From the NCBI RefSeq assembly GCF_042242105.1, contig NC_092026.1:18392691-18456690 (forward strand): a stretch of 64,000 nucleotides of DNA, in the 5' to 3' direction. The translations under genes were made by a program, and so were the position numbers. The notes below the pieces were generated by a model that saw only the letters and a program-made list of their open reading frames with translations, did no database searches and was not told where the DNA came from. This document shows, piece after piece, positions 47,733 through 53,147 of this stretch (the stretch's first letter is position 1; each line of letters begins with the position of its first letter). Source of the stretch: Pempheris klunzingeri. Lineage: Eukaryota; Chordata; Actinopteri; Acropomatiformes; Pempheridae.

Positions 47733-53147
<5,415 letters not shown>

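What the first reader, a model, noticed from the sequence alone, without database searches (positions are those of the whole stretch)
51694..51711. In-frame 18-nt microexon in cyclin Y
Between two certain ccny exons there is a strong pyrimidine tract with CAG, 18 bases, then GTGAGTAG. The length and phase fit perfectly: inclusion adds Glu-Met-Pro-Cys-Arg-Asn between SQND and VREKRK, and skipping yields the human-like protein. The insert would sit in the N-terminal regulatory region upstream of the phospho-regulated YSSCS segment, so it could tune CDK14/14-3-3 binding. Short in-frame microexons are often neural-specific in vertebrates. I know of no such exon in mammalian CCNY.
Basis: partly seen in the sequence, partly recalled or inferred. 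Interest (0 to 1): 0.75.

Follow-up and report, generated by a model that had tools for sequence, protein, structure and literature searches.

The report
Possible 18-base microexon in fish ccny
An intron of a fish cyclin Y gene holds two strong splice signals exactly 18 bases apart that could splice six extra amino acids into the protein; it is a good candidate for a small optional exon, but without RNA data a chance look-alike remains possible.

Summary
On the minus strand of a ccny gene, between SKSQND (exon ends 53073) and [12 protein letters not shown] (exon starts 51398), lies ctcctctctctttttcag|AAATGCCCTGCAGGAATG|gtgagtag at 51711-51694. It would add EMPCRN in frame. Both sites score like the gene's real sites. 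Among 70 acceptor-donor pairs 3-51 nt apart on both strands it ranks 2nd, behind a genuine 36-nt ccny exon. Markov nulls give 0.007 (both sites as strong, 3-30 nt) to 0.05-0.09 (summed score, 3-51 nt) in-frame pairs per 64-kb strand: notable here, but many chance equals are expected over 646 Mb.

SRRM3/4-type neural layout is mostly not met (nearest upstream UGC at -44, AG at -28, no branch-site match, strong sites). CU repeats and a downstream GCAUG fit PTBP/Rbfox control better, weakly. No such pair lies in the same intron of two ccnyl1-like paralogues, nor in the last 733 nt of the closest paralogue's; about 2.2 kb of that intron could not be fetched. The donor matches the upstream exon's donor region at 15 of 16 bases. 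No RNA or other fish genome was available. I put it near 0.55 that it is ever spliced in.

The parts
51694..51711 (-). candidate 18-nt microexon AAATGCCCTGCAGGAATG, phase 1, adds EMPCRN
   Evidence: sequence; only pair of its strength in the window; rank 2 of 70
51712..51738 (-). CU-rich tract and AG acceptor; CTCTCT at -15 and -13
   Evidence: score 8.5; motifs
51686..51693 (-). donor gtgagtag
   Evidence: score 5.8, same as the real upstream donor
51681..51696 (-). 16-nt direct repeat, candidate-donor copy
   Evidence: 15 of 16 bases match 53060-53075
53060..53075 (-). 16-nt direct repeat, real upstream-donor copy
51619..51623 (-). GCATG, 71-75 nt into the downstream intron; possible Rbfox site
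   Evidence: motif scan; function inferred
53073..53147 (-). upstream ccny exon (..[23 protein letters not shown])
   Evidence: tblastn, borders
51364..51398 (-). downstream ccny exon, 35 nt ([12 protein letters not shown])
   Evidence: tblastn, borders

Best explanation
A real cassette microexon of one of the ccny copies of this fish. The spliceosome can use the CU-rich tract with AG at 51712 and the donor at 51693 to include 18 bases, adding EMPCRN just before VREKRK in the N-terminal tail of cyclin Y; skipping gives the human-like protein. Shown: sequence, phase, site strength. Inferred: use by the spliceosome; control, most likely by PTB-family repression on the CUCUCU tract with possible Rbfox help from the downstream GCAUG, and not by SRRM3/4; an effect on 14-3-3 or CDK coupling, from position only. 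The donor may have arisen as a copy of the upstream exon's donor (suggestive).
For: Site scores within the range of the gene's real sites; candidate donor and the real donor are the only donors at 3.5 or more in the intron, and the candidate acceptor is the best of the four at 4 or more; rank 2 of 70 pairs, first being a real 36-nt ccny exon; in-frame length, no stop, right phase; few in-frame equals in Markov nulls; CTCTCT at -15/-13 and GCATG at +71. Zebrafish brain yielded 1882 microexons, so the class is common (PMC7821500 passage), and zebrafish seems to have a larger lineage-specific share (PMC12626424 section 5).
Against: No RNA evidence. Chance rates scale to roughly 70-900 in-frame equals per strand of the 646-Mb genome. 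No such pair in the introns of the C10 and C24 paralogues or the last 733 nt of the C21 intron. No yTnAy branch-site match within 60 nt upstream (4 of 9 real ccny acceptors lack it too). The skipped form is the only one known to me in mammals. The score matrix is recalled, not trained.
Confidence: 0.55

Rival explanations
1. Chance pseudo-exon: a good-looking pair of splice signals in intron sequence that is never or hardly used.
For: Chance pairs of this summed strength appear in 14-23% of simulated 64-kb strands, of any length class, and hundreds of in-frame ones are expected genome-wide; no comparable pair in the paralogue introns examined; no branch-site match.
Against: Both sites as strong as the real ones and in the right phase; in-frame pairs with both sites this strong are rare in the order-4 null (1 in 150 strands).
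Confidence: 0.43
2. SRRM3/4-dependent neural microexon, as the first reader's remark on neural microexons suggests.
For: Length, frame and UC repeat in the tract; most zebrafish neural microexons depend on srrm3/4 (191 of 243, PMC12626424 section 5).
Against: Nearest upstream UGC starts at -44; AG at -28 and no branch-site match; strong sites, unlike neuronal clusters in mouse.
Confidence: 0.1
3. Nearly constitutive exon of this ccny copy: strong sites give inclusion in most tissues, so that this copy normally makes the longer protein.
For: Site strengths; constitutively included microexon clusters have the strongest sites (PMC7821500); the next exon's acceptor is weak in this copy, 3.8 against 8.7 in C21 and 6.4 in C10.
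Against: Very short exons are prone to skipping (PMC10551640 passage); the residues on both sides are joined directly in human cyclin Y.
Confidence: 0.12

Closest known systems
Vertebrate in-frame microexons (PMC7821500, PMC12626424)
   Same: 3-27 nt length class, in frame, inside a conserved gene, in the regulatory tail
   Different: No inclusion data; strong sites, unlike neuronal clusters; no mammalian counterpart known to me
Src N1 exon, 18-nt PTB-repressed neural exon (recalled, not read here)
   Same: 18 nt, in frame, CUCUCU in the upstream tract, (U)GCAUG-type element downstream
   Different: Different gene; here the GCAUG is a single core motif at +71 and no regulation is shown
Human CCNY isoforms CCNYm and CCNYc (PMC8250429, passages)
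   Same: Isoform variation in the N-terminal part of cyclin Y
   Different: CCNYc loses the N-terminus; a six-residue insert is not described in the passages read

Membership tests
Vertebrate in-frame microexon | 3-27 nt, length a multiple of 3, no stop in frame | tested here: met
   18 nt, GAA ATG CCC TGC AGG AAT across the phase-1 borders
Vertebrate in-frame microexon | usable AG and GT borders | tested here: met
   scores 8.5 and 5.8, within the range of real ccny sites; matrix recalled
Vertebrate in-frame microexon | included in mature RNA | not testable with these tools
   no transcript data held
Vertebrate in-frame microexon | conserved borders in related species | tested here: inconclusive
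   no fish collection; not found in the C10 and C24 introns nor in the last 733 nt of the C21 intron; rest of C21 not fetched
SRRM3/4-dependent neural microexon | UGC close to the 3' site | tested here: not met
   nearest upstream UGC starts at -44
SRRM3/4-dependent neural microexon | UC repeat in the tract | tested here: met
   CTCTCT at -15 and -13
SRRM3/4-dependent neural microexon | long AG exclusion zone and strong branch site (described for fly eMIC exons) | tested here: not met
   AG at -28, no yTnAy in 60 nt
PTBP-repressed, Rbfox-enhanced exon | CU-rich sites in the upstream tract | tested here: met
   CTCTCT at -15 and -13, TCTT at -10; such tracts are common
PTBP-repressed, Rbfox-enhanced exon | GCAUG shortly downstream | tested here: met
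   GCATG at +71, TGCATG absent; a GCATG is expected by chance in roughly one of seven 150-nt stretches
PTBP-repressed, Rbfox-enhanced exon | inclusion changes with PTBP or Rbfox level | not testable with these tools
   needs RNA or a minigene

The most novel reading that the evidence does not exclude
After gene duplication one ccny copy gained a microexon by re-using a copy of its own upstream donor. Its strong sites compete with, or help define, the next 35-nt exon, whose acceptor is weaker in this copy than in the paralogues. The EMPCRN insert, placed beside the basic VREKRK stretch, makes a tissue-specific cyclin Y with altered 14-3-3 or CDK14/16 coupling.
Probability: 0.12. Interest if true: 0.5.

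Novelty: new member of a known kind. Interest (0 to 1): 0.3.

Why it matters
If spliced, it would give cyclin Y, an activator of CDK14 and CDK16, a six-residue switch in its regulatory tail, and would be a clear case of a microexon arising in one duplicate of a conserved gene. A search of the held papers for CCNY with microexon found none; that library lacks most subscription journals and the supplementary microexon lists were not readable. If it is a pseudo-exon it is an ordinary intron feature.

Tried and rejected
Conservation in other fish: no vertebrate collection is held. Scans for stray fish DNA found no ccny relative in viral contigs (2 pattern matches, none confirmed) or prokaryote genomes (51 pattern matches, none confirmed); an exact 31-base pattern scan of viral contigs found 0.

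Rest of the C21 intron (about 5456856-5459018): not obtained, because the genome tools stopped answering; a random-genome null was planned and dropped for the same reason.

Longer exons sharing a border: read on past the donor the frame meets TAG at intron bases 6-8. Other intron acceptors at 4 or more lie at 52567, 52021 and 51535, and no other intron donor than the real one and the candidate reaches 3.5.

Repeat origin: the 41-base core, up to 3 mismatches, has one place in the genome; no tandem repeat overlaps it (46000-64000 only).

SRRM4 reading: lowered, cis features not met.

Literature: (CCNY and microexon) 0 papers. Searches (15 of 22 listed; 12 of 30 listed; 10 of 18 listed) showed no title on a CCNY microexon. 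One search was swamped by its generic terms: 15 of 3,476 listed, none with CCNY. One search found 0; one search found 1, on plants; one search listed 2. 'ccny' does not occur in the main text of PMC12626424 or PMC12626420; their supplementary tables could not be read.

A tblastn printed nothing for any of three loci (probably a wrong option); the loci were read by eye instead.

Full report
What is there. Its minus strand carries most of a ccny gene: pieces matching human cyclin Y residues 50-341 lie between 53154 and 47736. The first exons were not found in the window (best E 0.32, not convincing). A frizzled ORF (33415-35259) and a connexin ORF (43280-44509) lie beside it; FZD8, GJD4 and CCNY are neighbours in the human genome (recalled), which supports the name ccny. 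In the intron 53072-51399 (1,674 nt) the sequence ctcctctctctttttcag AAATGCCCTGCAGGAATG gtgagtag lies exactly where the finding puts it. The frame is G|AA ATG CCC TGC AGG AAT G|TG: EMPCRN before VREKRK.

Is it more than chance? With a consensus matrix recalled from memory the acceptor scores 8.5 and the donor 5.8; nine real ccny acceptors range 0.6-10.1 and eight real donors -0.6 to 6.1. The intron holds only two donors at 3.5 or more, the real one and this one, and of four acceptors at 4 or more (its true 3' end scores 3.8) this is the best. Among 70 pairs 3-51 nt apart (acceptor at least 2, donor at least 1) on both strands of the window, ranked by summed score, the first is a genuine 36-nt ccny exon (50851-50816) and the second is this candidate. 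The same score ranks the real VREKRK exon (35, 44 and 35 nt) first in all three paralogue stretches examined; in the window's own gene that exon scores only 3.8 plus 3.9 and is not among the 12 rows printed, so the score misses real exons too. Order-4 Markov nulls gave 5 pairs, 1 in frame, in 150 strands of 64 kb for 3-30 nt with both sites at least as strong. Orders 2, 3 and 5 with summed score and 3-51 nt gave 0.27, 0.17 and 0.25 pairs and 0.08, 0.05 and 0.09 in-frame pairs per strand. Scaled to 646 Mb these mean roughly 70 to 900 in-frame equals per strand. Against that stand 1882 microexons detected in zebrafish brain (PMC7821500, passage). The odds are about even to mildly favourable; this is the basis of 0.55, a judgement and not a computed posterior.

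Paralogues. A search with the joined ccny peptide found four family loci: C15 (window), C21, C10 and C24. C21 shares KYTIK with the window's gene and is its likely duplicate; C10 and C24 look ccnyl1-like (compared with recalled human CCNYL1). The matching intron is 491 nt in C10 and 74 nt in C24, and neither holds a comparable pair; the last 733 nt of the C21 intron hold no donor at 3 or more. A blastn of the window's intron against these stretches shows the exons and only short pieces of E 0.35 or worse inside introns (E 0.024 when the query is cut to the candidate and its flanks: 20 bases just downstream of the donor, which match near the 3' end of the C10 intron). The candidate ends 295 nt before the next exon. 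The first 2.2 kb or so of the C21 intron could not be fetched in 28 requests. So the candidate is not general in the family; whether C21 has it is open.

Origin. The longest of three direct-repeat families in 51380-53160 is the 16-nt pair 51681-51696 and 53060-53075, 15 of 16 alike: candidate donor and real upstream donor. Part of this is donor consensus; the rest suggests, but does not prove, that the donor was copied.

Control. SRRM-dependent exons are described with UGC and UC repeat upstream (zebrafish; PMC12626420, passages), with UGC near the 3' site, UCUC tracts, long AG exclusion zones and strong branch sites (fly; PMC8797185, passage), and with weak 3' sites (PMC10551640, passage; mouse neuronal clusters in PMC7821500, section 7 part 1). 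Here the UC tract is met; UGC is nearest at -44, AG occurs at -28, no yTnAy lies within 60 nt (4 of 9 real ccny acceptors also lack one) and the sites are strong. PTBP1/2 bind CU-rich sites in upstream tracts, and PTBP1 represses microexons that Rbfox promotes (PMC10551640, passages). CTCTCT at -15 and -13 and GCATG at +71 would fit, but such motifs are common.

Effect. The insert lies after residue 76 of the human protein, between the N-terminal segment and Ser100 that are needed for PCTAIRE-1 and 14-3-3 binding (PMC4613515, abstract and passages). An effect on that binding is possible and untested.

Verdict. A microexon is plausible, SRRM-type neural control is weakly supported, and the decisive data (RNA junctions, other fish) were out of reach.

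Noticed in passing
window 51364-51398 (-), with C21, C10 and C24 counterparts in L017, L019, L021: The acceptor of the constitutive 35-nt VREKRK exon is weaker in this copy (3.8) than in C21 (8.7) and C10 (6.4); its summed score is 7.7 against 13.3, 11.0 and 12.3 in C21, C10, C24. The C10 exon is 44 nt instead of 35.
   Followed up: partly
window 51535 (-): A second good intron acceptor (6.4) with a CTAAC branch-site match 23 nt upstream, 137 nt before the VREKRK exon; a possible alternative 3' site.
   Followed up: no
window 33415-35259 (+) and 43280-44509 (-): Frizzled and connexin ORFs next to ccny, probably fzd8 and gjd4, as in the human block (human order recalled).
   Followed up: partly
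window 60847-61596 (+): ORF with a Tc3-type transposase helix-turn-helix domain (PF01498), upstream of the ccny exons found.
   Followed up: no
window 6907-6996 (-) and 624-691 (-): A tRNA-Pro (AGG) prediction of 90 bases and a second tRNA-like match just above the gathering score (29.8 against 29). A tRNA this long for proline is odd; an intron is possible.
   Followed up: no
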